The notes under the pieces: generated by a model | What the model was told of the DNA's origin: nothing | What the model saw: the letters and a program-made list of their open reading frames with translations, nothing else | Databases searched by the model: none | Translations under genes and position numbers: made by a program | Source: Ruegeria sp. ANG-R | GTDB lineage: Bacteria; Pseudomonadota; Alphaproteobacteria; Rhodobacterales; Rhodobacteraceae | Direction of reading: 5' to 3' | DNA length: 64,000 bases | NCBI RefSeq assembly: GCF_000813985.1 | Contig: NZ_JWLJ01000001.1 | Location: forward strand, 670,453-734,452 | Shown: positions 29,221 to 45,302 of the stretch, one piece after another | How the letters are laid out: each line of letters starts with the position of its first letter | How positions within the stretch are numbered: position 1 is the stretch's first letter

Positions 29221-29947
29221 TGTCGTGACCGGGACGCCGGGTGTATTGGAGGTAAGCGGGTTGTCCATTGCCCGCGATGGCAAGGTGCTGCTGGATGTCC
29301 CGCATCTGTGTCTCGATGGCCCCGGCCCAACACTGATTCTTGGTCCCAACGGGGCGGGCAAAAGCCTGTTGCTGCGCTGCCTGCACGGTTTGATTCAGCC
29401 GGACCGGGGACGAGTCTGCCAGAACGGGGTTGTTTTGAATGCGGGTCACAAAGCGCGGCAGGCGATGGTGTTTCAAAGCCCTGTATTGTTGCGCCGCTCG
29501 GTTGCGGCCAATCTGGACTTTGTGTTGAAGCGGCAATCCATGCCACGCGCGCTGCGCAAGAGACGTATCGAGGCCCTGCTGGCCGAAGGTGGGCTGGATG
29601 GTAAGGCACGTCAACCCGCGCGCTCGCTCTCCGGCGGCGAGGCGCAGCGGCTGGCGATTTTACGGGCGCTGGCGTTGGACCCCGAGACGTTGTTTCTGGA
29701 CGAGCCCACCAGCGCATTAGACCCCAGCGCCACGCAGATGATCGAGCGGATGGTGCTGCGCGCCTCGACCCGTGGTGTGCGCATCGTGATGGTGACGCAT
29801 GACATCGGGCAGGCGCGACGTCTGGCATCGGACATCGTGATGATGCAGGCGGGATATGTGGTTGAACACGGGGCGGCGCGGCGCGTTCTGGAAACCCCGG
29901 AAAGCGACGACTCGCGCCGGTATCTGGCTGGCGGATTGGTAACCTGA
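29213..29947 (+). CDS. tupC: tungstate ABC transporter ATP-binding protein
   Basis: A 244-residue ATPase: Walker A LGPNGAGKSLLLR, signature SLSGGEAQRLAILRAL, Walker B LFLDEPTSALDP, switch VTHDIGQARRLA. Short length without a C-terminal regulatory TOBE domain fits TupC rather than ModC. It is coupled to tupB (8-bp overlap) and tupA (1-bp overlap). Confidence 0.9.
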   Translation: MRDVVTGTPGVLEVSGLSIARDGKVLLDVPHLCLDGPGPTLILGPNGAGKSLLLRCLHGLIQPDRGRVCQNGVVLNAGHKARQAMVFQSPVLLRRSVAANLDFVLKRQSMPRALRKRRIEALLAEGGLDGKARQPARSLSGGEAQRLAILRALALDPETLFLDEPTSALDPSATQMIERMVLRASTRGVRIVMVTHDIGQARRLASDIVMMQAGYVVEHGAARRVLETPESDDSRRYLAGGLVT

Positions 29948-30783
29948 TGAATAGATGGAGAAAACGAGTGATTCCAGATTTCATTCGTGTATCGGTAGTG
30001 GCGCTTGGCCTGACGACGGGCATTGGTTGGGCAGACGAGCCCTTCATCATCGTGCAATCCACGACATCGACGCAGAACTCGGGCTTGCTGGATTACATCC
30101 TGCCGGGATTTGAGGCGGAAACCGGTATCGACGTTCGTGTCGTTGCTGTTGGAACCGGGCAGGCGATCCGGAATGCGGTCAACGGCGATGGCGATGTTCT
30201 GCTGGTTCACGCCAAACCCGCCGAAGAACAGTTCGTGGCTGATGGCTGGGGCGTGGAACGGTTCGACGTCATGTACAACGACTTTGTGCTTGTCGGCCCA
30301 AAGTCTGACCCGGCAAATGTGAAAGGCGGCTCGGATATTGTCGAGGCGCTGGCAACCGTGGCTGGTGGAGAAGCCCCTTTCGTTTCGCGCGGGGACGACA
30401 GCGGGACGCATAAGGCCGAGATGCGCCATTGGGGTGCGGCAGGCATCGACCCGACAGGAGCGTCGGGAACCTGGTATCGCGAAGCCGGTGCGGGCATGGG
30501 GGCAACGTTGAACGTGGCCAGCGGAATGGGAGCCTATGTTCTGACGGACCGTGCGACATGGCTGTCCTTCGGCAATCGGGGCGATCTTGAGGTTTTGGTC
30601 GAGGGCGACCCGCGGTTGTTCAACCAATATGGCGTGACCCTCGTGAACCCGGAAAAGCACCCCGGAGTGCGCGCAACTGCAGGTCAAAGGTTCATTGACT
30701 GGCTGATCGGACCGGATGGTCAAGCTGCGATCGATTCATATATGCTGGATGGTCAGCAGTTGTTTTTCTCAAACGCGAAGTAG
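29947..30783 (+). CDS. tupA: tungstate-binding periplasmic protein
   Basis: A 278-residue binding protein with a signal peptide ending near GIGWA-DEP. The TupA ligand motif STTSTQNSGLLDYILPGF follows at about residues 40-57; in TupA the TTTS-type segment binds the oxyanion. SRGDDSGTHKAE and NQYGVTLVNPEKHPGV are also conserved. Tungstate is preferred in this family, matching the formate dehydrogenase island next door; molybdate cannot be excluded from sequence alone. The order B-C-A is unusual, since A-B-C is more common. Confidence 0.9.
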   Translation: MNRWRKRVIPDFIRVSVVALGLTTGIGWADEPFIIVQSTTSTQNSGLLDYILPGFEAETGIDVRVVAVGTGQAIRNAVNGDGDVLLVHAKPAEEQFVADGWGVERFDVMYNDFVLVGPKSDPANVKGGSDIVEALATVAGGEAPFVSRGDDSGTHKAEMRHWGAAGIDPTGASGTWYREAGAGMGATLNVASGMGAYVLTDRATWLSFGNRGDLEVLVEGDPRLFNQYGVTLVNPEKHPGVRATAGQRFIDWLIGPDGQAAIDSYMLDGQQLFFSNAK

Positions 30784-31835: not shown

Positions 31836-33098
31836 TCAGTTTTCAGGTGCCGTCGCGCGTCGCAGGAAGGCGATCAGATCAATACGGTCTTGCGATCCGG
31901 TGATCCGCTGCATCGGCATCTTTGATCCCGGAATGTAGTGGTCCGGGCCCTCGTCGAAAAGAGCGTTTATCGTGTCTTCATCCCAAATGATATCAGAGTT
32001 TTGCAGTGTGTCTGAGTAGAGATACTCGGGTAAAGTACCTGCTGAGCGCCCAAACACGCCATACAGGGTCGGCCCCGCACGCCGTCGGCCATCCGGTGTC
32101 AGGCTGTGGCAGATTGAGCATTTGCGGGCGAACTGGCGTTCCCCGTTTCCCATTTCGTCCGGGTTTTTTAGAAAGCTGGGTTCGGTTGCCGCCATTTGTT
32201 CGCGATCTTCCGGGGCAGAGATCGGCCAGCTGTACATCGCTTCATCGATGCCGCCAGCGTGGATGTTCTGTCCATCGGTCGAAAAGGCCAGCGCCCAAAC
32301 GGGCCCGCGCAGCGTGGCCCTGAAATCCTGTGCGATGCGCCAGTTCAGGGTGTCGATGACCATGATGTAACCCTCACCATCGCCGACTGCGAGAAGACTT
32401 CGATCAGGGCTGAGGGCAAGCGCCAGGATCGGGCGGCGATCGAGTGTAAAGTCGTGTTCCTGACCGGTCTTCAGGTCGAGGATGCGGGTCACGCCATCGA
32501 CGGCACCGTAGGCGATCCAGTTGTCTGCAGAATTCAGGACCAACTCGTTTATGCCAAACCCATGTTCGACAAGACGATCCACCTCGTGACCGCTTGCGAC
32601 GTCCCAGACACGGATCGAACCATCGACGCCGGCCGACCAAAGCTGTGATCCGTCAGCTGTGAACACCACCGCGTTTACCCCGCTTCCCGTTGGCCCGAGC
32701 AGCTTGGGTTCTGATCCATCAACTGGCCAAAGACCGATCGTTCCGTCCCAGCTTGCCGTTGCAACATGGGTTTTTGATGCGGCCAGACCGACAATTTTTC
32801 CTTTGTGTTGGCCAACGACGTCTCCACCGGGCCAGCGGCGTAGAGTGAAGTCATCCCCGGCGGAGTAGATTGCGGTACCGTTGAACGCGACAGTGTTGAC
32901 GGCAGCTTCGTGCCCTTCCAGCCATTCCGGGTTCTGTCCGGTCCAGATACCAACCGAGTTGTCGAAACTAGCAGTAGCGATACGACCATCCGGTGCGGTT
33001 GCGATGCCCATGATCGGCCCGCCGTGGCCCTTGAGTGTGAAGAACTCAGCTGACGCGGACACAGGGGCCAAGGCCAGTGCTAAAAATAGCCAGCGCAT
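31836..33098 (-). CDS. periplasmic WD40-repeat cytochrome c
   Basis: A 420-residue protein with signal peptide MRWLFLALALAPVSASA, then about seven WD40-type blades (for example FTLKGHGGPIMGIATAPDG; ATASWDGTIGLWPVDGS; SAGVDGSIRVWDVASGHEV) to residue about 300, and a C-terminal class I cytochrome c domain: CSICH at 327-331 (heme attachment) with a likely axial Met in SKMPMQ near 394-396. It starts directly after the fdhC stop. A role as an electron acceptor or docking partner for the periplasmic formate dehydrogenase is inferred. Confidence 0.85.
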   Translation of the reverse strand: MRWLFLALALAPVSASAEFFTLKGHGGPIMGIATAPDGRIATASFDNSVGIWTGQNPEWLEGHEAAVNTVAFNGTAIYSAGDDFTLRRWPGGDVVGQHKGKIVGLAASKTHVATASWDGTIGLWPVDGSEPKLLGPTGSGVNAVVFTADGSQLWSAGVDGSIRVWDVASGHEVDRLVEHGFGINELVLNSADNWIAYGAVDGVTRILDLKTGQEHDFTLDRRPILALALSPDRSLLAVGDGEGYIMVIDTLNWRIAQDFRATLRGPVWALAFSTDGQNIHAGGIDEAMYSWPISAPEDREQMAATEPSFLKNPDEMGNGERQFARKCSICHSLTPDGRRRAGPTLYGVFGRSAGTLPEYLYSDTLQNSDIIWDEDTINALFDEGPDHYIPGSKMPMQRITGSQDRIDLIAFLRRATAPEN

Positions 33099-34280
33099 CT
33101 ATTCCGCAGGCGAGGCCACACCTTTGCTCGCCTCTTTTTCCTGCACCTCGTCCAGCCACAGCGAGTGGTGCTCGCGCGCCCACTGTTCCTCAACCTCGCC
33201 AGTGCCCATGGCGTCAAACGCGCCCTCCATTCCGACGGAACCCAGATAGATATGAGCAATGATGATGGCGATGAACACATAAGCCACCATGACGTGCCAG
33301 ACTTGCGCGTATTGCATCTCTTCCTGCGGAGACATCTGTAAAGGCAGGTTCAGCCCAAGCATCTGAGGAATACCGGTTGAATTCGCAATCGAGAAGGTTT
33401 TGGCAAACAAAGGCATCTCGAACGGGAACAGCAGGGACAGGCCCGATAGGCTGATAGAAACGCCCAAAAGAATGCACGCCCAGAAGATGATCTTTTGCCC
33501 AGCGTTGAACTTCTTGGCAGGCGGGTGACTGCCTTTGGTGAACAGCCCCCCTCCGGCGGCCAGCCATTTCAGGTCGGTCCGGTTGGGGATGTTATGCGCG
33601 ATCCAGTTCAAGGTCACGATGATCAGCCCCAGCATAAAGGCCCATGCGAGGTTATTATGCAGCCACTTGCACCCCTGAGCGATGGCGGCAAAACCCTCTT
33701 TCCCGAAAATCGGGATCAGGAAATCCCGACCATAGAGCGTCAGCAGACCGGTGAGGCCAAGGATCAGGAATGATCCGGCAAAAAGCCAGTGGCCGAATCG
33801 TTCGAAACCGGAAAACCGCGTCACGGTGCGGCCTGTTTTCTCTCCGTCGATGCGGATTTTGCCACGCAGCAGGAAGAACAAAAGAATGATCGCCACCATT
33901 CCAACCAGAATATAGGTGCCGTATTCGCGAAGCGGGCCGGTGCGAAAGTTCAGCCACCACATCCCACCATCCTGGATCAAGACGCTGGCGGCCGGTCCTC
34001 GGGATGAAACTGTGACATCGGCTGATCCGTATCGCAAAGCGCGATATACGTCGCTGTCTGACGCGACTCCGCGTGTTCCTAGCTGACCCAGCAGCCCCTC
34101 TGCATTTCCTTGCCCGGTATTCTCGGACCGATAAGAATTGTCGACCTGTTCTCCGCGCTGGCGTGCAAGAATGTCTTCAAGTGTCGAGGCGCCTCCAGTG
34201 GTCGAGCGATCAGGAGCTTCCTGTGCCAGAGCGGGCACCGTGAAGACAAAAATGCAGAAGATAAGTCGCAGAAATGCCAT
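33099..34280 (-). CDS. fdhC: formate dehydrogenase cytochrome b556 (gamma) subunit
   Basis: A 393-residue membrane subunit passing electrons from FdhB to quinone via b hemes. A signal-like segment (MAFLRLIFCIFVFTVPALA) is followed by a periplasmic stretch, then four to five membrane segments: YILVGMVAIILLFFLLRG, FGHWLFAGSFLILGLTGLL, WLHNNLAWAFMLGLIIVT, and YVFIAIIIAHIYLGSVGM; His residues in these segments are the expected heme ligands. The frame opens at 34322; ATG 34280 with AGAGG upstream gives the signal peptide start. Confidence 0.92.
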   Translation of the reverse strand: MAFLRLIFCIFVFTVPALAQEAPDRSTTGGASTLEDILARQRGEQVDNSYRSENTGQGNAEGLLGQLGTRGVASDSDVYRALRYGSADVTVSSRGPAASVLIQDGGMWWLNFRTGPLREYGTYILVGMVAIILLFFLLRGKIRIDGEKTGRTVTRFSGFERFGHWLFAGSFLILGLTGLLTLYGRDFLIPIFGKEGFAAIAQGCKWLHNNLAWAFMLGLIIVTLNWIAHNIPNRTDLKWLAAGGGLFTKGSHPPAKKFNAGQKIIFWACILLGVSISLSGLSLLFPFEMPLFAKTFSIANSTGIPQMLGLNLPLQMSPQEEMQYAQVWHVMVAYVFIAIIIAHIYLGSVGMEGAFDAMGTGEVEEQWAREHHSLWLDEVQEKEASKGVASPAE

Positions 34281-34332
34281 GTCAGCCTCTGTCGCGGTGT
34301 TGCAATCGGACCTCCGCCACAAAACGCGGCAG

Positions 34333-34353
34333 AGATTTTTCGTCGAAAAATCT
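34333..34353. repeat. palindrome shared with the preA gene end
   Basis: AGATTTTTCG, central T, CGAAAAATCT: identical to the first palindrome at 19939-19959. It lies in the 122-bp gap between fdhB and fdhC, inside what otherwise looks like a single operon. Confidence 0.75.
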
Positions 34354-34402
34354 TATGGTGCCCCGGCGCGACCTGCGCGCGCCGGTACATCCGTTGGCGG
34401 AG

Positions 34403-34996
34403 TTATCCGTCTTTCTGGTCGTAGGCCGTGCCCCAACCCCAAGCGCCCGAGCCGAAGCCGCGCGCCACGACGCGTTCGCGGTAAACGGCAGACACCACGT
34501 CGCCGTCACCGGCAAGCAGGGCTTTGGTGGAGCACATCTCGGCGCAGATCGGCAATTTGCCCTCGGCGATCCGGTTGCGACCGTATTTGGCGAACTCTGC
34601 GGTCGAGTGCGTTTCCTCGGGGCCACCGGCGCAGAAGGTACATTTGTCCATCTTGCCGCGCGATCCGAAGTTGCCCGCCTGCGGGTATTGCGGCGCACCG
34701 AAGGGGCACGCATAGAAGCAATAGCCGCAGCCAATGCACAGGTCCTTTGAGTGCAGGACGACGCCTTCTTCGTTCTGATAGAAGCAGTCGACCGGGCACA
34801 CCGCCATGCAAGGCGCATCCGAACAATGCATACAAGCCACCGAGATCGAGCGTTCGCCCGGGTTGCCGTCATTGATTGTCACCACCCTGCGGCGGTTGAT
34901 GCCCCACGGCACCTCGTGTTCGTTTTTACACGCGGTTACGCAGGCGTTGCACTCGATGCAGCGTTCAGCGTCGCAGAGAAACTTTGCTCTAGCCAT
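34403..34996 (-). CDS. fdhB: formate dehydrogenase iron-sulfur (beta) subunit
   Basis: A 197-residue four-cluster ferredoxin: [20 protein letters not shown] near the N-terminus, [38 protein letters not shown], and CTFCAG...CAEMC. It carries electrons from FdhA to FdhC. It lacks a C-terminal membrane anchor as found in E. coli FdnH. The tail is Gly/Trp-rich ([18 protein letters not shown]). It starts 12 bp after fdhA. Confidence 0.95.
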
Positions 34997-35008
34997 TCGT
35001 CGTCCTCC

Positions 35009-37903
35009 TTACGCTGCCGAGATCTTGCAGAGAGTCGCTTTGGTCTCCTGCATCTGGGTCACTGAATCGTAGCCATAGGTTTGGGCGGTGTTGGAGCTTT
35101 CACCCAAGACATAGGGATCAGCGCCTGCGGGATATTTGTCCCGCAAATCCTGTCCCTGGAAATGGCCGCCAAAGTGGAACGGCATAAAGGCGACACCGGC
35201 ACCGACCCTGTTGGTCAGCATCGCCATCACTTTGACCTTTCCACCCTCAGGACCTTCGACCCAGACCTGCGATCCATCGCGAATACCAAGGTTGTTGGCA
35301 TCGCGTGGATTGATCTCGACGAACATGTCTTGCTGAAGCTCGGCCAGCCACGGGTTCGACCGGGTTTCCTCGCCACCGCCCTCATATTCGACCAGACGAC
35401 CTGACGTCAGGATTATCGGGTAATCCTTTGAAAAGTCGTTCTTTTGGATCGAGGCATAAAGGGTAGGTAGGCGATAGGCCTGACGGTCCTCGTAGGTCGG
35501 ATAATCCGCCACCAGATCGCGTCGGTTCGTATAGAGCGGCTCGCGATGCAGCGGGACGGGGTCCGGGAAGGTCCAGACGACCGCACGGGCTTTGGCGTTC
35601 CCGAAGGGCGCACAGCCGTGCTCGATCGCAACCCGCTGGATGCCGCCCGAAAGGTCAGTCTTCCAGTTGGTCTTCTCGGCTGCAACGGCATCAATGGCCG
35701 CGCGTTCTTCTGCGGTCAGATCGCCGTCCCAGCCTAGATCCATCAGCATCTGCATCGTGAATTCGGGATAGCCATCCTGAATTTCCGACCCAACGCTATA
35801 GACCCCTTCGGCCAGCAGGTTGTCGCCATCGCGTTCCACGCCAAAGCGAGCGCGGAAGGTCAGGCCGCCTTCGGCCACCGGTTTGGACATGTCATAGAGG
35901 TTTGGTGTCCCCGTATGACCCATTTCCGGTGTTCCCCAGCAGGGCCAGGGCAGACCGTAGTACTCGCCATCATTCGGACCGCCCACAGCCTGCAGCGTAG
36001 TTCTGTCGAACGTGTGCTGGTTGGCCATGTGGCTTTTCAGACGTTCTGGCGATTGTCCGGTATACCCGATTGTCCAGAGGCCCGAGTTGAACTCACGCGT
36101 GATGCTTTCAACATTCGGGGTTTCGGGATCTTCCATCTCGATATTGCGGAAGAACCGATCCGCCCAGCCGAACTTGTTGGCGAACTTGGCCATGATGACC
36201 TCGTCGGGCAGGCTTTCGAACAGGGGTTCGACGATCTTGTCCCGCCACTGCAGCGACCGGTTCGAGGCCGTGACCGAGCCACGGGTTTCAAACTGCGTAC
36301 AGGCGGGCAACAGGTAGACGCCATCGGTGCGGTCATGCAGTACGGCGGAAACGGTGGGATACGGGTCGATCACGACTAGCATGTCCAGCTTTTCCATCGC
36401 CGTTTTCATTTCCGTCATTCGGGTCTGCGAGTTGGGCGCGTGGCCCCACAGAACCATGGCGCGAACATTGTTGTCTTGGTCCATGTTGGCCGGGTCTTCC
36501 AGAACACCGTCGATCCAGCGAGAGACCGGGATTCCGCGCTCGTTCTGCAGCGGTTTGTCCTTGCCTTCCTTGTCCTTGATCGTGGCGAATTGGCCTGCGA
36601 GCCATTCGGGCTCTTCACCCCAGACACGAGCCCAGTGACCCCATGCGCCTTTCGACAGGCCATAGTAGCCCGGCAGAGTGTGGGACAGAACACCAAGGTC
36701 GGTTGCGCCCTGCACGTTGTCATGGCCACGGAAGATATTGGTGCCGCCACCCGAAGTGCCCATGTTGCCTAGAGCTAACTGGAGCACGCAATAGGCGCGG
36801 GTGTTGTTATTGCCGTTGGTGTGCTGCGTACCACCCATGCACCAGACGACCGTACCGGGACGGTTGTTCGCCATCGTGCGGGCAACGCGCTTCAACTGTG
36901 ATCCCGGAGTTCCGGTTACACGTTCGACCTCATCCGGGTTCCACTTAGCAACCTCTTCGCGGATCTGATCCATACCCCAGACACGGGTGCGGATGAACTC
37001 TTTGTCCTCCCAGCCGTTGTCGAAGATGTGCCACAGGATACCCCAGATCAGCGCCACGTCTGTACCAGGGCGGAAGCGGACATATTCATCTGCATGAGCC
37101 GCAGTGCGCGTAAAGCGCGGATCACAGACGATCAGCGGTGCGTTGTTCTGCTCTTTCGCGCGCAGAATATGCAGCAGCGAGACGGGGTGCGCCTCGGCCG
37201 GGTTGCCACCGATGATGAAGATAGCCTTGCTATTGTGCATGTCATTGTACGAATTGGTCATGGCGCCGTAGCCCCATGTATTCGCAACACCCGCAACAGT
37301 GGTTGAGTGGCAGATACGAGCCTGGTGATCTACATTGTTCGTGCCCCAGTAGGCGGCGAACTTGCGGAACAGATAAGCCTGTTCGTTATTATGCTTGGCA
37401 GAACCCAGCCAATACACGCTGTCTGGCCCGGATTCCTCGCGGATGCTCATCATGCCGTCGCCGATCTCGTTGATCGCCTCTTCCCAGCTGATGCGCTTCC
37501 ACTCGCCGCCTTCCTTTTTCATCGGATACTTGAGGCGGCGCTCGCCATGGGCGTGCTCGCGGACCGAGGCCCCCTTGGCGCAGTGTGCACCCAAATTGAA
37601 CGGACTGTCCCAGCCGGGTTCCTGCCCGATCCAGACGCCGTTCTGTACCTCGGCTACGACCGTGCAGCCCACCGAGCAGTGAGTGCATACGGATTTGATA
37701 TTCTCAACGGCGGTGTTTGCCGCTGTCTGGGCACTGGCAGGCGTCACGGTTCCACCCGTGGCGCTGATCGCGGCAAGGCCGCCGATCGTCAGGCCCGAGC
37801 CACGCAGGAATGCGCGGCGATCGACGGTTTTCTCGCCGACTTGGGACAGGATACTTGTCCGCTGGGGGCGTCTCGCAACCCCGTTGGTCTTTTTCCTAAG
37901 CAT
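35009..37903 (-). CDS. fdhA: formate dehydrogenase catalytic (alpha) subunit, Mo/W-bis-MGD
   Basis: Oxidises formate to CO2 in the periplasm. The 964-residue protein has a Tat signal (DRRAFLRGSG, residues 28-37), a [4Fe-4S] motif C73xxC76xxxC80...C108, and the metal ligand at C198 in RICHSTTVAG, encoded by TGC, so this is a cysteine and not a selenocysteine enzyme. HSTTVAG is the formate dehydrogenase active-site stretch with the catalytic His. GGGAGG lies 6 bases before the ATG. Tungsten use is plausible because tupBCA is in the same island. Confidence 0.96.
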   Translation of the reverse strand: MLRKKTNGVARRPQRTSILSQVGEKTVDRRAFLRGSGLTIGGLAAISATGGTVTPASAQTAANTAVENIKSVCTHCSVGCTVVAEVQNGVWIGQEPGWDSPFNLGAHCAKGASVREHAHGERRLKYPMKKEGGEWKRISWEEAINEIGDGMMSIREESGPDSVYWLGSAKHNNEQAYLFRKFAAYWGTNNVDHQARICHSTTVAGVANTWGYGAMTNSYNDMHNSKAIFIIGGNPAEAHPVSLLHILRAKEQNNAPLIVCDPRFTRTAAHADEYVRFRPGTDVALIWGILWHIFDNGWEDKEFIRTRVWGMDQIREEVAKWNPDEVERVTGTPGSQLKRVARTMANNRPGTVVWCMGGTQHTNGNNNTRAYCVLQLALGNMGTSGGGTNIFRGHDNVQGATDLGVLSHTLPGYYGLSKGAWGHWARVWGEEPEWLAGQFATIKDKEGKDKPLQNERGIPVSRWIDGVLEDPANMDQDNNVRAMVLWGHAPNSQTRMTEMKTAMEKLDMLVVIDPYPTVSAVLHDRTDGVYLLPACTQFETRGSVTASNRSLQWRDKIVEPLFESLPDEVIMAKFANKFGWADRFFRNIEMEDPETPNVESITREFNSGLWTIGYTGQSPERLKSHMANQHTFDRTTLQAVGGPNDGEYYGLPWPCWGTPEMGHTGTPNLYDMSKPVAEGGLTFRARFGVERDGDNLLAEGVYSVGSEIQDGYPEFTMQMLMDLGWDGDLTAEERAAIDAVAAEKTNWKTDLSGGIQRVAIEHGCAPFGNAKARAVVWTFPDPVPLHREPLYTNRRDLVADYPTYEDRQAYRLPTLYASIQKNDFSKDYPIILTSGRLVEYEGGGEETRSNPWLAELQQDMFVEINPRDANNLGIRDGSQVWVEGPEGGKVKVMAMLTNRVGAGVAFMPFHFGGHFQGQDLRDKYPAGADPYVLGESSNTAQTYGYDSVTQMQETKATLCKISAA

Positions 37904-38253: not shown

Positions 38254-38865
38254 TTAGGCCGCCGTCATTCGGAAGGCTTCGCGTTCAATCTCCATGAACA
38301 CCCGACCGGCGGTACCGACCGAGGCATAGAGCACCGAGTTCTCAGCGCCTTCCAAATCCGAATAGAAATGCGCGGCCCAGGGGCCGATATGTTTACTCCA
38401 GAACGCTTTTTGATCTTCGACCGAGGCAGGGGTGCCAAACCGACCGACGATCATGCCCGCCATCATTTCCATCAGCGACGCGATGTTGTCTTCAGGCTCA
38501 TAAACATTCTGCGCTCGGGTGATGCCCCGCGCTGCCATGTCATTGCGCAATTGGGCCAGAGGTTTCTCGTTCAGGAACCCTGTCAGATAGAAAGAGGCAT
38601 AAGGCAGCAGTTCGCCCCGCCCCAATCCGATGAACAGCGCGTTAAATTCCCGTTCGGCAGCGGCGGGTTTGGTGACCTTTGCCACCCGCGCCATGGCCTG
38701 AATGGCCTGACCTAGATCCGAGTCATCTCCGCTCAGGCCAGCCATCTGGTCCAGCAGCACATGATCGGGCGGACCGGCAAGAAGCAGGCCCAGGAAATTG
38801 TAGAAATCAGCGCGCAGGCGATCCTCGGCCGAGACGTCCAGGGGTTGCGCGTTATTTGCGGTCAT
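38254..38865 (-). CDS. TorD/DmsD-family molybdoenzyme chaperone
   Basis: A 203-residue helical protein with the TorD family pattern: DFYNFLGLLLAGPPDHVLLD near the N-terminus, EFNALFIGLGRGELLPYASFYLTGFLNEKPL in the middle and EPEDNIASLMEMM. Such chaperones bind the Tat signal of the catalytic subunit and hold it until the molybdopterin cofactor is inserted. It lies just upstream of the Tat peptide and fdhA, which are its likely clients. Confidence 0.92.
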   Translation of the reverse strand: MTANNAQPLDVSAEDRLRADFYNFLGLLLAGPPDHVLLDQMAGLSGDDSDLGQAIQAMARVAKVTKPAAAEREFNALFIGLGRGELLPYASFYLTGFLNEKPLAQLRNDMAARGITRAQNVYEPEDNIASLMEMMAGMIVGRFGTPASVEDQKAFWSKHIGPWAAHFYSDLEGAENSVLYASVGTAGRVFMEIEREAFRMTAA

Positions 38866-38869
38866 TCAG

Positions 38870-39451
38870 CTATCCTTCGAATTCAAATTTCATACGGCGT
38901 GGGGCAGGGGTAAGCTCAGCGTCCTCTGAGTCTTCCTCGGCTGCCATCAACATGGGTTCTGGTGAAGGTTCGGCGGCGTAGGACTCATCAGCTTCTGCTT
39001 CGGCAAGCTCGGAGGCATCGATCTCTGGCTCGGTTTCCGCAACTTCCTCTGGGGCGGCAAGAGCTTCGACATGAGCCAGCATACCCTTGCCAACCTGATA
39101 GGCCGTCTGGATGTTCTCGATCACGCAGGCGGCGTCTGTGTAGTCTTCGCCATAGTCGACCAGACCGTCGACGTTCGCCAGAACCGGGTTCAGCCGCCAC
39201 AAACGCCGAAGCGCCCGACGGCGCAGGCGGTCGGGTACGGCCTTGGCCATAAAGCCCGAGATATCGTCACCCTCCTGCAGTTGGTCGGGGTCGGGCAGGT
39301 TGAACTCGGCCAGAAGCTCGGCATCGGTCTTTTCATCCAACTCGGCGTGCTGCGCAGCCAGCGCCTTCTCTTCGACCGTCGCGCGCTCGGCCTCGGCTTC
39401 GGCCTGAACGGCGGCCTTGCGGCGGGACCAGAAATCGCGCGCTTCGCTCAT
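38870..39451 (-). CDS. DUF3306 protein
   Basis: A 193-residue protein whose first half matches DUF3306: RDFWSRRKAAVQAEAEA, LPDPDQLQEGDDISGFMAKA, VPDRLRRRALRRLWRLNPVL, then DYGEDYTDAACV. The second half is an acidic Glu/Ala-rich stretch ending RRMKFEFEG. The family occurs with DUF3305 in formate dehydrogenase clusters; the function is unknown. The stop is 4 bp from the start of the TorD gene, and the start overlaps DUF3305 by 4 bp. Confidence 0.85.
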   Translation of the reverse strand: MSEARDFWSRRKAAVQAEAEAERATVEEKALAAQHAELDEKTDAELLAEFNLPDPDQLQEGDDISGFMAKAVPDRLRRRALRRLWRLNPVLANVDGLVDYGEDYTDAACVIENIQTAYQVGKGMLAHVEALAAPEEVAETEPEIDASELAEAEADESYAAEPSPEPMLMAAEEDSEDAELTPAPRRMKFEFEG

Positions 39452-40002
39452 TGCAGAACCCTGCGCGGCGCGCGGTAAACATCGGAGTCCTGACGGATGC
39501 GACCGTCACCGCGGCCGTCTTCGACCAGATCGATGCGTTTCTTGTCACGGCGGCGTTTGACGAAGACCTCATCCTTGTGATGCAGGAGCGTGAAATCCCG
39601 CACCCAGGCAATCAGCCCTTCGGTCATCGGAATTTTCTCGACGATCTCTTCCCCGGTATCCGCGTAGTCCTGACCTTCGAACGGAGAGGCCGTGACCAAG
39701 ACGGCATTCAGCGGCTGATCGCCCCTCAGTTCATCCCGCAGCACCAGATAGATCGACGGCTGGCCGTCGGCGAGGTTTACCATATAAGCTTCGGTTTCGT
39801 CGCGCCATAATGTCAGGGGCAGGGTGGCAGCATGATACTCGACGGCGTCGCCTTCCCGGCGCAGCTCGTGCCAATTGGCGGGGCCTGCACCGGGCAGTAC
39901 CGCGACAGCGCGCCAGTTCCATCGCGCCCAGCGGGTCACTCCGGGTGTTTTGCGCACGACGACGCCAACCGACATTTCAATCTGGCTTGCGGCCTTGGCC
40001 AC
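39448..40002 (-). CDS. DUF3305 protein
   Basis: A 184-residue protein: IEMSVGVVVRKTPGVTRWAR, WRAVAVLPGAGPANWHELR, TLPLTLWRDETEAYMVNL, SIYLVLRDE, matching DUF3305. It has no metal or nucleotide motif visible. The C-terminus is basic (VKRRRDKKRIDL). The open frame extends to 40086, but the GTG at 40002 has GGAGGAG five bases upstream. It is the first gene of the formate dehydrogenase transcript, directly behind the divergent promoter region. Confidence 0.83.
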   Translation of the reverse strand: MAKAASQIEMSVGVVVRKTPGVTRWARWNWRAVAVLPGAGPANWHELRREGDAVEYHAATLPLTLWRDETEAYMVNLADGQPSIYLVLRDELRGDQPLNAVLVTASPFEGQDYADTGEEIVEKIPMTEGLIAWVRDFTLLHHKDEVFVKRRRDKKRIDLVEDGRGDGRIRQDSDVYRAPRRVLQ

Positions 40003-40041
40003 TGGCTCCTCCCCGGAAGGCTCTCCCCTGCCTTCGCTAAG

Positions 40042-40057
40042 ATGTACTATGATACAT
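40042..40057. promoter_or_regulatory. inverted repeat in the divergent fdh/polyferredoxin promoter region
   Basis: ATGTA-CTATGA-TACAT, 5-base arms around 6 bases, in the 257-bp gap between DUF3305 and the polyferredoxin. On the minus strand, TTGGCA (complement of 40071-40076) precedes it with promoter-like spacing. The rest of the gap is A/T-rich up to about 40190 and otherwise shows no recognisable element. Confidence 0.35.
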
Positions 40058-40259
40058 AATTTGACGTTGTGCCAAGTCCACATCACGCGATTTGGTCGTA
40101 TTCACCATTAATTTATTCGTTAACAGTCTCTGATTATGGTGATGGCCTGTGGTGTGATGAAAAATAATGCATAAATCGGGTTTTCGTCCCGACGTTGCAT
40201 TGCCCCCGCCCGGATTAGGTCTAAGGTGCTTGGGGGCAGCAAGCAGTCCGGGGGAGGAT

Positions 40260-42215
40260 ATGGCCAGCAAGCTTTTGTTATGTGACTGCGAGAGGACGCA
40301 GTCACTGGATGCAGATCGCATATCGTCGACCTGCGAGGTGAGTTGCTCCAAGGTACACACAGCTTTGTGCACGCGTGAACTTGGCTTGGCGGTCGAACTG
40401 CTCAAGACAGACGATCAGGTGGTCATTGCTTGTGGGCAAGAGAAGGAGGTGTTTTCCGATCTCGCGGATGATCTCGGAGCGGATCAGCCTGGTTTTGTTG
40501 ATCTGAGAGACCGCGCCGGATGGTCCGCACAGGGTAACGACGAGACCCCGAAGATGGCTGCGCTGACAGCCGAAGCACTTCTGCCTCAACCAATTGCGTC
40601 CAGCGTAGATGTTATTAGTGAAGGTACCTGCTGTATCATCGGCCCTGGGAACATCGCCTATGAGCTCGCGGCGCAACTGTCAGACGCTCTGGCGGTGACG
40701 GTGCTGGTCACCGATGATGTCGAGCCGCTGAGCCGTGCTTTCGATGTGGTCCGCGCAAAGGTGCGCAGCCTGAGCGGTGCCCTGGGTGGTTTTACGTGGC
40801 AGTTGGATCAAGTACAGCAGCTAAAGCTTGGCGGGCGCGGTCGCTTTACATGGGGCGCACCTCGGGATGGGGCGACTTCACGCTGTGATATCGTTGTTGA
40901 TCTGACCGGCGGAACGCCATTGGTTCCTGCGGACGAGAAACGCGAAGGCTATTTGCGCGCCGATCCTCGCGATGCCGTCGCCGCTGCCCGTGTTGCCTTC
41001 GAAGCTGTGCAGCTTGTGGGGACGTTCGAGAAGCCGCTTTACGTGCGCCTCGACGAGTCACTTTGCGCCCATTCGCGGGCAGAGCAAATTGGGTGTTCGA
41101 ACTGTCTGGATATCTGCCCAACCGGTGCGATCGCGCCTGCAGGAGATCATGTTGCGATCGATCCCATGATCTGTGCGGGATGCGGGGCGTGCTCTGCTTT
41201 GTGTCCCTCGACCGCGATCACTTACGAGGCCCCGCCGGTTTCGGCACTTCTGGCGCGTATGCACATCCTGGCGCGTACCTACCGACGCGCCGGTGGGACG
41301 GCGCCGCGCTTGTTGATCCATGATGAGCACGGGGCTGAAATGATCCGTCTTTCTGCCCGGTTTGGCCGGGGCCTTCCTGCGGATGTCATCCCGTTGGAAC
41401 TGAGTGTGATCTCAGGCTTTGGTCATGCCGAGATGCTGGCTGCGCTGGCGCACGGATTTGCGCGTGTCGATGTCCTTCTGGCCCCAAGAACCGAGCGGGA
41501 CGCACTGCACCTGGAACTGGCTCTGGCGCAGGCTATTGCCGGTGATGCCGGAATTGGCGTGATCGATGAAACCGATCCGGATGCCCTGTCAGATCTGCTC
41601 TATACACAGCAAGTCCCGCGGTCCTTGATCGATCCCGTGTTGCCGCTCGGCAATCGACGGCAGATTGCGCGATTGGCTGCGCAGGCTTTGAATCCCAAAG
41701 CCGAAGCACCTTTGCCGCTACCGGAGGGCGCACCATACGGAGCCGTCGCGGTGAACGCGGATTCCTGCACCTTGTGTCTAAGCTGTGTATCACTGTGTCC
41801 CTCTGGTGCGCTGATCGACAACCCGGACAAACCGCAACTGAATTTCCAGCAGGACGCCTGCCTGCAGTGTGGACTCTGCCGTACGATCTGTCCCGAACAG
41901 GCGATCGCGCTGGTGCCTCAGCTTGATCTGAGCGACAAGGCATTGTCGCAGCAGGTGCTGAATGAAGAAGAGCCGTTCGAATGCGTCGAATGCGGTGCGC
42001 TCTTTGGCGTCAGATCAACAGTCGAGCGGATCATGGAAAAGCTTTCAGGCACGCATCCGATGTTTGCGACCTCGGATCAGGCAAGACTGATCCAGATGTG
42101 CGATGATTGCAGGGTGAATGCCCAGTTCCACAGCGCCGACAATCCCTTTCAATCGGCGCCGCGCCCTCGCGTTGTAACGACGGATGACTATCTCTCGAAA
42201 CGCAAGGATCACTGA
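40260..42215 (+). CDS. multi-cluster 4Fe-4S protein of formate dehydrogenase islands
   Basis: A 651-residue cytoplasmic protein. Residues 1-60 are Cys-rich (CDC at 8-10, C25, C29, C37, C58); 130-160 is a Rossmann-like turn (IIGPGNIAYELA); 279-325 and 503-548 are two double [4Fe-4S] ferredoxin domains (CSNCLDICP, CAGCGACSALCP, CTLCLSCVSLCP, CLQCGLCRTICP). The C-terminus has two CxxC pairs (C575/C578 and C614/C617). It is divergent from the fdh operon. An electron donor or maturation function is inferred. The upstream frame to 40167 is unlikely; GGGGAGG lies just before ATG 40260. Confidence 0.85.
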   Translation: MASKLLLCDCERTQSLDADRISSTCEVSCSKVHTALCTRELGLAVELLKTDDQVVIACGQEKEVFSDLADDLGADQPGFVDLRDRAGWSAQGNDETPKMAALTAEALLPQPIASSVDVISEGTCCIIGPGNIAYELAAQLSDALAVTVLVTDDVEPLSRAFDVVRAKVRSLSGALGGFTWQLDQVQQLKLGGRGRFTWGAPRDGATSRCDIVVDLTGGTPLVPADEKREGYLRADPRDAVAAARVAFEAVQLVGTFEKPLYVRLDESLCAHSRAEQIGCSNCLDICPTGAIAPAGDHVAIDPMICAGCGACSALCPSTAITYEAPPVSALLARMHILARTYRRAGGTAPRLLIHDEHGAEMIRLSARFGRGLPADVIPLELSVISGFGHAEMLAALAHGFARVDVLLAPRTERDALHLELALAQAIAGDAGIGVIDETDPDALSDLLYTQQVPRSLIDPVLPLGNRRQIARLAAQALNPKAEAPLPLPEGAPYGAVAVNADSCTLCLSCVSLCPSGALIDNPDKPQLNFQQDACLQCGLCRTICPEQAIALVPQLDLSDKALSQQVLNEEEPFECVECGALFGVRSTVERIMEKLSGTHPMFATSDQARLIQMCDDCRVNAQFHSADNPFQSAPRPRVVTTDDYLSKRKDH

Positions 42216-42937
42216 AGTTGCAGCGGTGCGCCCAGATCGGCGGCGCTGATGGCGGCGACGAAGGCGAGAATCGCTTCAAGATCATCCAGGCTCATTTCAA
42301 CCGGATGGATGGGCGATGGGCGCTCGGGCGAGAATGGTTCGGTCACGCCCTCGATTTGGGTGAACGAGGGATGCGGGTTCAGGGCAAAGAATGCCTGAAA
42401 ACGCTCGGACCAGTCGGGCATCGCGCGCAGGACGGCGAAAGACGGCGTAGAGCCAAGCCCATTCATGCGGTTCTGCGGTCCAATGACGTGGCAACGGCCG
42501 CAATGCGTAAACGACAGATCTTGCCCCAACGCCGCATCGCCTTCGATTTCCTGTTCCTCGTCAACGACTGCAACATCGAAACTCGCGCTGAAGGGTGCTC
42601 CCTCGGTGGGAGCAAAGCTTTCGACCGTTCGCTTGCCAATATCGGACAGCAGCCAATCGCGGAAACGCGTCTGTTGAGGAGCGTCCATCGTGCGAAGATG
42701 ATAAATGACACCATCACGCGCAAAAACCGGATCACCCGGAGGCGCGATGGCCAGTGACATGACGCCGTTTTCATCTGCGACAACGCGTATCCCGGTCTTG
42801 AGTGAGAAGCGCGGAAGAATATGTTGCAAAAGACCCGTGTCTGAGACTGCATCGGGTGCCGCAAGGCCAATCGCCTCTTGTGACCAAGAGGGGGTGGCAG
42901 AGAGCGTCAAGCTCAGGCACAACAGGGCAAAGCGCAT
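42209..42937 (-). CDS. cytochrome c with an N-terminal shortened TupA-like domain
   Basis: A 242-residue exported protein (signal MRFALLCLSLTLSATPSWSQ). Residues 33-55 (DTGLLQHILPRFSLKTGIRV) mirror the TupA opening NSGLLDYILPGFEAETGIDV, and 91-117 (RFRDWLLSDIGKRTVESFAP...) mirrors the TupA end RFIDWLIGPDGQAAIDSYML; the roughly 150 residues between are missing. A c-type heme motif CGRCH follows at 146-150 and a likely ligand Met is near 219. It ends 7 bp inside the polyferredoxin gene, tail to tail. The ATG at 42937 is preferred to a TTG two codons upstream. Confidence 0.75.
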   Translation of the reverse strand: MRFALLCLSLTLSATPSWSQEAIGLAAPDAVSDTGLLQHILPRFSLKTGIRVVADENGVMSLAIAPPGDPVFARDGVIYHLRTMDAPQQTRFRDWLLSDIGKRTVESFAPTEGAPFSASFDVAVVDEEQEIEGDAALGQDLSFTHCGRCHVIGPQNRMNGLGSTPSFAVLRAMPDWSERFQAFFALNPHPSFTQIEGVTEPFSPERPSPIHPVEMSLDDLEAILAFVAAISAADLGAPLQLQ

Positions 42938-43069: not shown

Positions 43070-44131
43070 ATGAGCATCCGTGATGCAGTTCTGGCGAACC
43101 TTAAGAAGATCACCGATCCGGTATCGGGGCAGGATATCGTCAGCGCAGGTATTGTCCGCGCGTTAAATGTTGAGGGTGATACTGTTCGTTTTGTGCTTGA
43201 GATCGACCCCAAACAGGCTGAGAAGATGGAGCCTGTGCGTGAGACCGCAGAGAAAGCTGCGCAAATGGTAGATGGCGTTACCAAGGTCTCGGCCATGCTG
43301 ACCGCACATTCCGACAAAGCGCCACCCGATCTGAAACCTAAGCCAAAACCCTCGCAGACAGGTCCTCAAGCCGTTCCCGGTGTCGACCGGATCATAGCGG
43401 TGGCCTCGGGTAAAGGTGGGGTTGGCAAGTCGACTGTCTCAGCGAACCTTGCTTGCGCATTGGCTGCGGAAGGGCGCCGGGTGGGGCTGCTGGATGCCGA
43501 TGTATATGGCCCGTCGCAGCCGCGAATGCTGGGTGTTTCAGGTCGTCCGGCCAGCCCGGATGGCAAGACAATCCTGCCGTTACGCAACCACGGCGTCACG
43601 ATGATGTCGATGGGGCTGATGACCAATGAGGGCCAGGCGGTTGTCTGGCGTGGTCCGATGCTTATGGGTGCGTTGCAGCAGATGATGAGCCAGGTGCAGT
43701 GGGGCGCGCTGGATGTGCTGATCGTCGATTTGCCGCCCGGTACCGGTGACGTGCAGTTGACCTTGAGCCAGAAGTTCAAAGTGGACGGGGCCATTGTGGT
43801 CTCGACCCCACAGGACGTGGCATTGATCGACGCCCGTAAGGGGATCGACATGTTCAATCAGCTCAAGACACCGATCGTTGGGATGATCGAAAACATGTCG
43901 ACCCATATCTGCTCGAATTGCGGACATGAGGAACATGTTTTTGGACATGGCGGCGTTGCGTCCGAGGCTGAGGCGCTGGGCGTCCCACTGTTGGGAGAGA
44001 TTCCGTTGCATCTGGATATTCGGGTCGCTGCCGACGGAGGTGCGCCGATTGTGGTCAGCAAGCCGGACAGCCCGCAGGCCGAATCTTTCCGCAAGATTGC
44101 ACGAGATATGATCGCCAAGGGCGATGCATGA
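43070..44131 (+). CDS. mrp: Mrp/ApbC-type Fe-S cluster carrier ATPase
   Basis: A 353-residue P-loop ATPase. Residues 1-75 are a MIP18-type domain (RDAVLANLKKITDPVSGQDI). The ATPase part has Walker A GKGGVGKSTVSANLA, VYGPSQPRMLG, DLPPGTGDVQLTL and the Cys pair CSNC near residue 280, which binds the transferred cluster. It can supply Fe-S clusters to apo-proteins such as those encoded nearby. It is coupled by an ATGA overlap to the next gene. Confidence 0.94.
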   Translation: MSIRDAVLANLKKITDPVSGQDIVSAGIVRALNVEGDTVRFVLEIDPKQAEKMEPVRETAEKAAQMVDGVTKVSAMLTAHSDKAPPDLKPKPKPSQTGPQAVPGVDRIIAVASGKGGVGKSTVSANLACALAAEGRRVGLLDADVYGPSQPRMLGVSGRPASPDGKTILPLRNHGVTMMSMGLMTNEGQAVVWRGPMLMGALQQMMSQVQWGALDVLIVDLPPGTGDVQLTLSQKFKVDGAIVVSTPQDVALIDARKGIDMFNQLKTPIVGMIENMSTHICSNCGHEEHVFGHGGVASEAEALGVPLLGEIPLHLDIRVAADGGAPIVVSKPDSPQAESFRKIARDMIAKGDA

Positions 44132-44826
44132 GCGAGCCGGTTTTTCCCCCTCTGCTGACAGGCCATCCGGTTCAGGGTGGGGAAGACCCGTTCGACCGGG
44201 CTCAGGCCATGGCGGCGCTGGGCTGCGACTCAGGTACGGTAGTCTACAACATTCAAGCGGATCATCTGCGGGTAGCCATCGTCTTTGCGCCTGAGGTGCC
44301 TTTGCGGGATGCAATGGCAATGCTGCCGCTCTGCGCCGTGGGGTTCCAGAACGCGCTGGGTGCTCTGGCCCCGCCCGAGGTTGCGGTGCATCTTGGCTGG
44401 GACGGATTGATTTGCGTAAACGGCGCCCGCTGTGGTGCCTTCCATACGGCTGCTTCCACGACTGATCCAGCCGAGCTTCCGGATTGGTTGATCATCGGAT
44501 GGGAATTGGCGTTGCTACAAACCAGCGATGCACCCGGTGAGACACCGGACGTGACCGCGCTTTACGACGAAGGCTGTGCTGATGTTTCGGCGACACAGTT
44601 GGTAGAAAGCTGGTCGCGCCACATGCTGACATGGCTCAATCGATGGGAAGAGGATAGCAATGCACCGCTGCATAGTGAGTGGATGGGATTGCTGCGCGGC
44701 GTAGGCGAGCCAATCGGGGAGGAAGGAGTTTTCCTTGGTACCGATGAACGGTTCGGTATGTTGATCCGCGATGGTGCCGAGACACATCTGCGCCCACTCA
44801 CCGATTTGTTGGAGACCGCAAGATGA
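44128..44826 (+). CDS. biotin/lipoate ligase-like protein with DUF4444 tail
   Basis: A 232-residue protein. The N-terminal 170 residues resemble a biotin/lipoate A/B ligase fold (FPPLLTGHPVQGGEDPFDRA; PPEVAVHLGWDGLICVNGA; LPDWLIIGWELALL). The usual catalytic Lys/Gly motif seems replaced (NGARCGAFHTAAS), so ligase activity is doubtful. The last 40 residues (GEEGVFLGTDERFGMLIR) match DUF4444. It is translationally coupled to mrp (ATGA) and to DUF6505 (ATGA). Confidence 0.8.
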   Translation: MSEPVFPPLLTGHPVQGGEDPFDRAQAMAALGCDSGTVVYNIQADHLRVAIVFAPEVPLRDAMAMLPLCAVGFQNALGALAPPEVAVHLGWDGLICVNGARCGAFHTAASTTDPAELPDWLIIGWELALLQTSDAPGETPDVTALYDEGCADVSATQLVESWSRHMLTWLNRWEEDSNAPLHSEWMGLLRGVGEPIGEEGVFLGTDERFGMLIRDGAETHLRPLTDLLETAR

Positions 44827-45302
44827 AGCTGGCTCGTGCTATCCATTTCGATGAAAGTGATATGAACGTGTTTCATTCACCTGCGAGAACCGGTGAATGG
44901 TGCATCTCGGGCGGGTTTGAGTTTTCGAACTGGGGTGAGGCGGATCTTGAAGGGAAGGCACGTCAGGCCTTTGCCAACGGTTGGCTGGGGCTCGAGACCT
45001 TTGGTCGCGTGACTTTTGTGGCAGTCACCCAAGTGGAACAGTCCGAGATGGACCAGATCGCGCAGAATCTCGCCGAACATTTCGTTCGTTTGTACGGCGC
45101 CCCCTCGGTTGATGCGGCGCTGGACGTGGCACAGACGGAGATTGCGCATATGTCCGAGCTTTGCGACGAACATGCCCCCAACACCCTGCTAACTGTCGCA
45201 CGGGAATTAACCGGCGCAGGCGTACACGAGGCATTTCGTGTCATCACTCCGCAGGAAACGCAGCTTGAAGCGCTGGCCGTCCATGGCTCGCTGGATGATT
45301 AG
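44823..45302 (+). CDS. DUF6505 protein
   Basis: A 159-residue soluble protein: LARAIHFDESDMNVFHSPAR at the start, GEWCISGGFEFSNW, KARQAFANGWLGLETFGR, and a helical C-terminal half. I recognise it as DUF6505, found with mrp and DUF4444 in Rhodobacterales. Function is unknown. It ends the three-gene operon and overlaps the converging flavin reductase by 4 bp. Confidence 0.75.
   Translation: MKLARAIHFDESDMNVFHSPARTGEWCISGGFEFSNWGEADLEGKARQAFANGWLGLETFGRVTFVAVTQVEQSEMDQIAQNLAEHFVRLYGAPSVDAALDVAQTEIAHMSELCDEHAPNTLLTVARELTGAGVHEAFRVITPQETQLEALAVHGSLDD

What the first reader, a model, noticed from the sequence alone, without database searches (positions are those of the whole stretch)
42209..42937. 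Cytochrome c carrying a shortened TupA-like domain
The first mature part aligns to both ends of TupA from the same island: GLLQHILPRF...TGI matches GLLDYILPGF...TGI, and RFRDWLLSDIG...VESF matches RFIDWLIGPDG...IDSY, while about 150 central residues are gone. A heme motif CGRCH follows. A tungstate/molybdate binding fold cut down and joined to an electron carrier would be a new kind of protein; it may sense metal oxyanions or dock to a metal-related partner.
Basis: partly seen in the sequence, partly recalled or inferred. Interest (0 to 1): 0.7.

Follow-up and report, generated by a model that had tools for sequence, protein, structure and literature searches.

The report
Heme protein with half a tungstate binder
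A small heme protein encoded beside formate-oxidising enzyme genes in marine bacteria carries what looks like one half of a tungstate-binding protein, stripped of its metal-binding site and probably reused as a docking piece for moving electrons.

Summary
The gene at 42209-42937 (-) encodes a signal peptide, a ~100-residue domain homologous to both ends of TupA with about 140 residues missing between, and a one-heme cytochrome c domain. A profile of the N-domain alone ranks TupA-type proteins first in the PDB (best E 1.8e-6); NCBIfam's TupA model matches 15 of 33 representatives; 40 column-shuffled controls fail. Both stretches map to TupA lobe A; hinge and lobe B are absent and the oxyanion-binding residues are lost, so 'cut-down TupA' is right but 'tungstate sensor' is not supported. 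The N-domain is under purifying selection (dN/dS 0.20). In 100 of 101 relatives the gene lies in an FDH3-type formate dehydrogenase island, though 34 of 138 genomes with the island marker lack it. Stand-alone relatives of the heme domain lie at the base of its tree, so the TupA half looks like a later addition. The usual axial Met is missing; His189 is invariant (102 of 102). Best reading: an accessory periplasmic electron carrier of FDH3 with the lobe as docking module.

The parts
42209..42937 (-). gene of the TupA-lobe / cytochrome c protein, 242 aa, ATG at 42935-42937, stop 42209-42211
42881..42937 (-). Sec-type signal peptide, about residues 1-19 (judged by eye; cleavage site inferred)
   Evidence: sequence; dN/dS 0.35
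42578..42880 (-). TupA lobe A-like domain, about residues 20-120; motif P-R-F-x-[LF]-[KR] (residues 42-47) in 100 of 102 members, W95 invariant in 33 of 33 representatives
42770..42874 (-). first TupA-like stretch (residues 22-56, matches window TupA 32-70)
42572..42742 (-). second TupA-like stretch (residues about 66-122, matches window TupA about 213-278)
42539..42571 (-). variable linker, about residues 123-133 (dN/dS 0.50 was measured on residues 115-133)
42212..42538 (-). cytochrome c domain, residues 134-242
42488..42502 (-). heme-binding motif CGRCH, residues 146-150
42371..42373 (-). His189 of N-P-H-P, invariant in 102 of 102 fused members, candidate sixth heme ligand (inferred)
29947..30783 (+). 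TupA-like substrate-binding protein of the same island, the homologue of the N-domain
33099..37903 (-). fdhC (gamma), fdhB (FDH3 beta, over the NCBIfam cut-off), fdhA: the formate dehydrogenase the cytochrome is linked to
38254..40086 (-). TorD/NarJ-type chaperone, DUF3306, DUF3305
40167..42215 (+). 682-aa 4Fe-4S protein, 3' neighbour, opposite strand in 100 of 100 relatives in which it was found
43070..45302 (+). Mrp-type ATPase, lipoate-ligase-like protein with DUF4444, DUF6505: 5' side of the island

Best explanation
The protein is an accessory periplasmic one-heme c-type cytochrome of an FDH3-type formate dehydrogenase island. It is exported by a Sec signal and given a covalent heme. Its C-terminal domain carries single electrons between the exported formate dehydrogenase complex (FDH3 itself, its cytochrome b, or the WD40-cytochrome c of the same island) and another carrier. 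Its N-terminal domain is lobe A of a TupA-like substrate-binding protein that has lost the hinge, lobe B and the oxyanion site; it no longer binds metal and serves as a protein-docking module that places the heme. Shown here: the homology, what is missing, the conservation and purifying selection of the N-domain, the link to FDH3 islands. Inferred: export and heme attachment (from sequence), the lobe fold (from homology), His/His heme ligation, electron transfer, docking, and which partner.
For: TupA homology of both ends in order. In the D. alaskensis structure lobe A is A2-R76 and Y201-E251 (PMC5517513, passages); 5my5, which I recall to be that protein, matches at chain 31-71 and 238-272, about residues 8-48 and 215-249 with the offset of 23 set from its TTTS motif. 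Ligand residues lost. N-domain median dN/dS 0.20 against 0.13 for the heme domain and 0.50 for the linker, on pairs with usable dS among 55 sequences. FeS protein, DUF3305 and DUF3306 in 100 of 101 relatives (the exception lies at a contig end); FeS gene on the opposite strand in 100 of 100, fdhA on the same strand in 93 of 93 where it scored over 500 bits. 104 of 105 genomes with the cytochrome have DUF3305, against 34 of 190 without it. FdhB passes the FDH3 beta cut-off; Methylobacterium fdh3 is described as periplasmic (PMC12180729, passages). Seven of ten stand-alone relatives fetched from other families of the class (L253-L262) also have FDH-island genes in the flanks held.
Against: No structure could be predicted. 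No direct evidence of electron transfer or of any partner. 34 of 138 genomes with DUF3305 lack the gene; of 20 of these 34 loci fetched, none showed the heme domain, and in 14 of 20 the FeS gene and mrp lie within 300 nt of each other, so FDH3 does not need it in general. Two members of the window's family have the heme domain alone and no island gene in the flanks held (L271, L272). The window protein scores below Pfam's Cytochrom_C cut-off. FdhC passes the usual gamma-subunit model, which offers a quinone route without this cytochrome. On single PDB chains one end carries most of the score: 3muq start 0.015 and end 4.2, 5my5 end 0.002 and start 170 as per-stretch E-values.
Confidence: 0.5

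Rival explanations
1. The lobe still docks on the TupB permease and so links tungstate uptake to the redox state of the periplasm or of FDH3; the heme is the redox sensor.
For: Lobe A is one of the two lobes that such a protein presents to its permease (recalled). A tupA, tupB or tupC gene is held in 38 of 88 relatives with at least 6 kb on that side; tupA is in 103 of 105 genomes with the cytochrome.
Against: tupA is as common in DUF3305 genomes without the cytochrome (33 of 34). Two genomes with the cytochrome show no tupA match (G227, G290).
Confidence: 0.12
2. The heme domain is not a carrier but a redox or gas sensor, or a factor in the maturation or repair of the exported FDH; the missing axial Met leaves an exchangeable heme site.
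For: No conserved axial Met: the only Met column is residue 158 (70 of 102), 8 residues after the heme motif; the place where five of six generic outgroup cytochromes have PHxxM holds Phe in 94 of 102. The island has a TorD/NarJ-type chaperone and several uncharacterised genes.
Against: An invariant His189 (102 of 102) can be the sixth ligand; but this His is also present in the Met-type outgroups, so its role is undecided.
Confidence: 0.18
3. The N-domain is a mere stabilising cap or spacer left from a fusion; the working part is the heme domain alone.
For: Stand-alone heme-domain relatives exist in FDH islands, including L253 at the same place between mrp and the FeS gene. Three N-domain-free members (L253, L271, L272) fall among the fused ones in one tree.
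Against: N-domain dN/dS 0.20 and a motif with charged residues kept in 100 of 102. The placement of the three is not settled: one clade for all fused members is not rejected (p-AU 0.79).
Confidence: 0.15
4. One reading: the cut-down TupA fold still senses tungstate or molybdate.
For: Homology to TupA.
Against: TTTS positions without any Ser/Thr in 78 of 102, RGDDSGT in 0 of 102, lobe B absent.
Confidence: 0.03
5. The resemblance to TupA is chance or convergence.
For: The window protein alone matches no binding-protein family in Pfam or NCBIfam; 26 of 33 N-domains do not match Pfam SBP_bac_11 at E <= 1.
Against: Separate profile searches agree on TupA, at both ends and in order, and shuffled profiles fail.
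Confidence: 0.02

Closest known systems
TupA, tungstate-binding protein of TupABC (NCBIfam NF041772; PDB 5my5, 3lr1)
   Same: 39 residues near the start and about 66 at the end of TupA, in the same order, i.e. lobe A; signal peptide
   Different: hinge, lobe B and ligand residues missing; fused to a heme domain; the window protein is not matched by the family model
class I one-heme cytochrome c (Pfam PF00034 / PF13442)
   Same: one CxxCH, size, weak but consistent matches (32 and 24 of 33 members at E <= 1)
   Different: no conserved axial Met, invariant P-H, conserved G-S-T-P-S-F and C-terminal D-L-G; window protein below the Pfam cut-off
FDH3-type formate dehydrogenase islands (NF038355 FDH3 beta; DUF3305/DUF3306/TorD)
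   Same: the cytochrome is an accessory gene of this island
   Different: absent from 34 of 138 genomes with DUF3305; not mentioned in the passages on DUF3305/DUF3306 operons seen in PMC4464133
Fusions of cytochrome c domains with molybdoenzymes (PMC6147048, passages)
   Same: a cytochrome c domain (pfam13442) joined to a protein of molybdenum/tungsten metabolism
   Different: there the partner is the molybdoenzyme; here it is half of a transporter's binding protein

Membership tests
TupA / tungstate-binding SBP | sequence homology to TupA | tested here: met
TupA / tungstate-binding SBP | curated whole-protein cut-off (NF041772, 400 bits) | tested here: not met
   window protein: no match at E <= 10; even the window's own TupA reaches only 203 bits
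TupA / tungstate-binding SBP | two lobes joined by a hinge strand | tested here: not met
   about 140 residues that hold the hinge and lobe B have no counterpart (lobe limits from PMC5517513)
TupA / tungstate-binding SBP | TTTS and Arg118/Thr124/Asp170 oxyanion residues | tested here: not met
   78 of 102 without Ser/Thr at the TTTS positions; RGDDSGT in 0 of 102
TupA / tungstate-binding SBP | lobe A fold | not testable with these tools
   structure prediction switched off
TupA / tungstate-binding SBP | binds tungstate | not testable with these tools
   needs calorimetry
class I cytochrome c | CxxCH heme motif | tested here: met
   both Cys and His in 102 of 102 fused members
class I cytochrome c | Pfam gathering score | tested here: not met
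   window protein 16 bits whole, 19 bits for the domain, cut-off 21.3
class I cytochrome c | axial Met | tested here: not met
   no Met column but residue 158 (70 of 102)
class I cytochrome c | covalent heme, redox activity | not testable with these tools
   needs protein
FDH3 island accessory gene | conserved neighbourhood | tested here: met
   100 of 101 relatives; 104 of 105 genomes
FDH3 island accessory gene | physical or functional link to FDH3 | not testable with these tools
   needs pull-down or knock-out

The most novel reading that the evidence does not exclude
A single lobe of a metal-oxyanion binding protein, cut from its partner lobe and ligand site, has been domesticated once, in or near the Rhodobacterales line, as a docking domain of a formate-dehydrogenase cytochrome: half of a two-lobe binding protein working as a protein-interaction module in electron transfer.
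Probability: 0.5. Interest if true: 0.6.

Novelty: new variant of a known kind. Interest (0 to 1): 0.5.

Why it matters
The family is common: 105 of 295 genomes of the window's family, about one a genus, have a member (102 of the 104 fetched are fused), and one scan of GTDB contigs found 368 coding stretches. Yet the five plasmid records checked name it 'hypothetical protein' (4) or 'c-type cytochrome' (1). If the reading holds, one lobe of a two-lobe binding protein can live on as a docking domain, and a periplasmic formate dehydrogenase of marine bacteria gains a candidate electron partner. Genomes with the island and without the gene (34 of 138) give a natural contrast for testing.

Tried and rejected
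Oxyanion sensing: rejected on the ligand residues. Chance similarity: rejected. A special link of the cytochrome to tupA beyond the island itself: not found. Secondary loss of the N-domain in L253, L271 and L272: suggested by one tree, but a single clade of all fused members is not rejected (p-AU 0.79; quick tree, 35 fused against 10 stand-alone rows, outgroups left out), so I do not claim it. Rise of the fusion by simple deletion between tupA and the cytochrome: the three stand-alone genes nearest to a tupA-like gene (L254 and L255, about 0.9 kb; L260, about 1 kb with a regulator between) are on the opposite strand to it, so no route is claimed. Solved structures: the heme domain alone gave only weak hits (best E 0.11, a cytochrome c2). 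Literature: eight searches listed no paper whose title or shown start of abstract describes a TupA-cytochrome fusion; only open-licence PMC papers are held. I saw passages of PMC4464133, PMC5517513, PMC6147048, PMC3227643 and PMC12180729, the outline with abstract and opening of PMC13197769, and search listings of the rest.
Full report
The thing itself. The gene lies at 42209-42937 on the minus strand and encodes 242 residues: a Sec-type signal peptide, a domain of about 100 residues, a short variable linker, and a one-heme cytochrome c domain with CGRCH at residues 146-150. The window is from a Ruegeria-like genome: the best relative in the genome collection is Ruegeria halocynthiae, 88 % identity. 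It lies in contig 1 of a 4.68 Mb assembly in which the protein finds only itself.

Is the TupA similarity real? I think yes. Pairwise statistics for one target are modest (BLASTP 5e-6 and 0.017; shuffled queries reached the score in 0 and 3 of 2000). I then collected the family: 110 of 295 genomes of the window's family matched at E <= 0.001, of which five matched only through a TupA-like protein, found blind through the N-terminal part (their loci L135-L139 hold tupA). Of the other 105, 104 were fetched: 102 fused and two with the heme domain alone. Profile against profile, the N-domain matches the start of TupA (window TupA 32-70, E 1.2e-6) and its end (alignment 192-278, of which about 213-278 is not already taken, E 2.1e-9); forty column-shuffled profiles gave at best E 0.0076 and score 22.9 against 45 and 61. 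The 33-row profile against the single window TupA gave the first stretch only, and ran it on to TupA 98 (E 1.1e-6), so the inner limits of the two stretches are uncertain. Three searches did not involve the window's TupA. A profile of the whole protein against 177,635 PDB sequences ranks 3muq, 3cvg and 5my5 first (1.1e-4, 3.9e-4, 4.6e-4). The N-domain alone gives 3muq 1.8e-6, 5my5 8.5e-6 and 3cvg 1.2e-4, then 3kn3 0.0027 and 3lr1 0.053, with molybdate- and iron-binding proteins at 0.46 and above; on single chains one of the two ends carries most of the score. Of these, 3lr1 is named a tungstate-binding protein, 3muq served as a search model for the TupA structure (PMC5517513), 5my5 is that structure by recall, and 3cvg and 3kn3 are TupA-type by my judgement. 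NCBIfam's TupA model matches 15 of 33 representatives at E <= 1, best 1.7e-6, and Pfam's SBP_bac_11 7 of 33, best 1.6e-4. Against this, the window protein on its own matches no binding-protein model in either library. In the class survey the family profile also picked out TupA-like genes by their two ends, in order and a few hundred bases apart, in at least 25 genomes by my count of the listed rows.

What is left of TupA. In the D. alaskensis structure lobe A is A2-R76 plus Y201-E251, lobe B A91-Q200, with a central strand T77-P89 between (PMC5517513, passages). The stretches of 5my5 that match are about residues 8-48 and 215-249, all in lobe A. So the domain is, by homology, a trimmed lobe A without hinge strand or lobe B; its fold is not shown. 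The residues that the paper names at the oxyanion site are gone: no Ser/Thr at the four TTTS positions in 78 of 102 members, one in 23, two in 1; RGDDSGT, in 45 of 47 TupA-like proteins of these genomes, in none of 102. The domain has its own motif, P-R-F-x-[LF]-[KR], in 100 of 102, and a Trp (residue 95) invariant in 33 of 33 representatives. It is not decaying: median dN/dS among 55 close relatives is 0.20, against 0.13 for the heme domain, 0.50 for the linker (residues 115-133) and 0.35 for the signal peptide, from the pairs with usable dS (1039, 814, 636 and 1295 of 1485).

The heme domain. Pfam's cytochrome c models match weakly but consistently (32 and 24 of 33 at E <= 1). The CxxCH residues and His189 of N-P-H-P are invariant in 102 of 102 fused members, and no Met column but residue 158 (70 of 102) exists. 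Five of six generic outgroup cytochromes (L265-L270) have PHxxM; at that place this family has Phe in 94 of 102. His/His ligation is my guess; a five-coordinate heme is not excluded.

Where it lives. In 101 relatives with longer flanks (all fetched fused members but the window's own), the 682-aa FeS protein, DUF3305 and DUF3306 are each present in 100, the exception (L097) lying at a contig end; the FeS gene is on the opposite strand in 100 of 100, fdhA on the same strand in 93 of 93 that scored over 500 bits. Across 295 genomes, DUF3305 is in 104 of 105 with the cytochrome and in 34 of 190 without. The formate dehydrogenase is FDH3: its beta subunit passes the curated cut-off (342.9 against 240 bits), a named plasmid record says the same, and fdh3 of Methylobacterium is described as periplasmic (PMC12180729, passages). 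The gene is optional: 34 DUF3305 genomes lack it; in 20 of these 34 loci that I fetched no heme domain of this family was seen, and in 14 of 20 the FeS gene and mrp adjoin within 300 nt. tupA does not explain its presence: 103 of 105 genomes with and 33 of 34 without the cytochrome have it.

Spread and origin. In 385 genomes of the class the full fusion appears in the window's family (five genomes drawn that match) and in two genomes of one other family; other strong hits are the heme domain alone, and weaker ones TupA-like proteins or cytochromes. In 398 genomes of the phylum the heme-domain profile matches 17, all marked as of the same class or nearer, some of them weakly over half of the domain; the kinship of the 361 genomes not listed is not shown. 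In 292 of the order it matches 92. Of ten stand-alone heme-domain loci from other families of the class (L253-L262), seven have FDH-island genes in the flanks held and three do not (L257, L259, L262); three lie within about 1 kb of a tupA-like gene (L254, L255, L260). On a tree of the heme domain with generic cytochromes on the far side, ten of thirteen stand-alone genes branch outside the clade that holds all 35 fused rows (support 97/93), and three (L253, L271, L272) inside it; holding all fused rows together is not rejected (p-AU 0.79). So the likely order is: FDH-island cytochrome first, one gain of the TupA half-domain later; whether some lines lost it again is open.

How it works. I think it is an electron carrier docked to the FDH3 complex by its lobe. 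The signal peptide, the heme motif and the island speak for it; the choice of partner and the direction of electron flow are inference. Alternatives are a redox link to the TupB permease, a sensor or maturation role of the heme, and a mere cap; each is testable as listed.

What is new. Neither domain is new. The joining of one lobe of a binding protein to a cytochrome is, as far as the searches named in Tried and rejected go, undescribed, and public annotation in the records checked calls the gene 'hypothetical protein' or 'c-type cytochrome'.

Noticed in passing
window 31836-33098 (-): A WD40 beta-propeller joined to a cytochrome c domain lies next to fdhC in the same island: a second unusual cytochrome fusion.
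   Followed up: no
window 30824-31696 (-): A regulator-like protein, excisionase-type HTH plus a PBP_like domain (PF12727), between tupA and the WD40-cytochrome c.
   Followed up: no
window 29947-30783 (+): The island's TupA scores 203 bits, under NCBIfam's TupA cut-off of 400; none of 295 family genomes reaches that cut-off. Tungstate as its ligand is inferred, although STTS and RGDDSGT are kept.
   Followed up: partly
window 43070-45302 (+): Mrp-type ATPase, a lipoate-ligase-like protein with DUF4444, and DUF6505 travel with FDH3 islands (94, 97 and 95 of 101 relatives); their role with a formate dehydrogenase is unexplained.
   Followed up: no
window 40167-42215 (+): A 682-aa protein with several 4Fe-4S sites and no match over a curated cut-off among the 25 best NCBIfam rows shown; its gene is on the strand opposite to the cytochrome gene in 100 of 100 relatives.
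   Followed up: no
L253 9442-9909: In a genome of another family the heme domain stands alone, without the TupA lobe, at the same place between mrp and the FeS gene: a natural comparison.
   Followed up: partly
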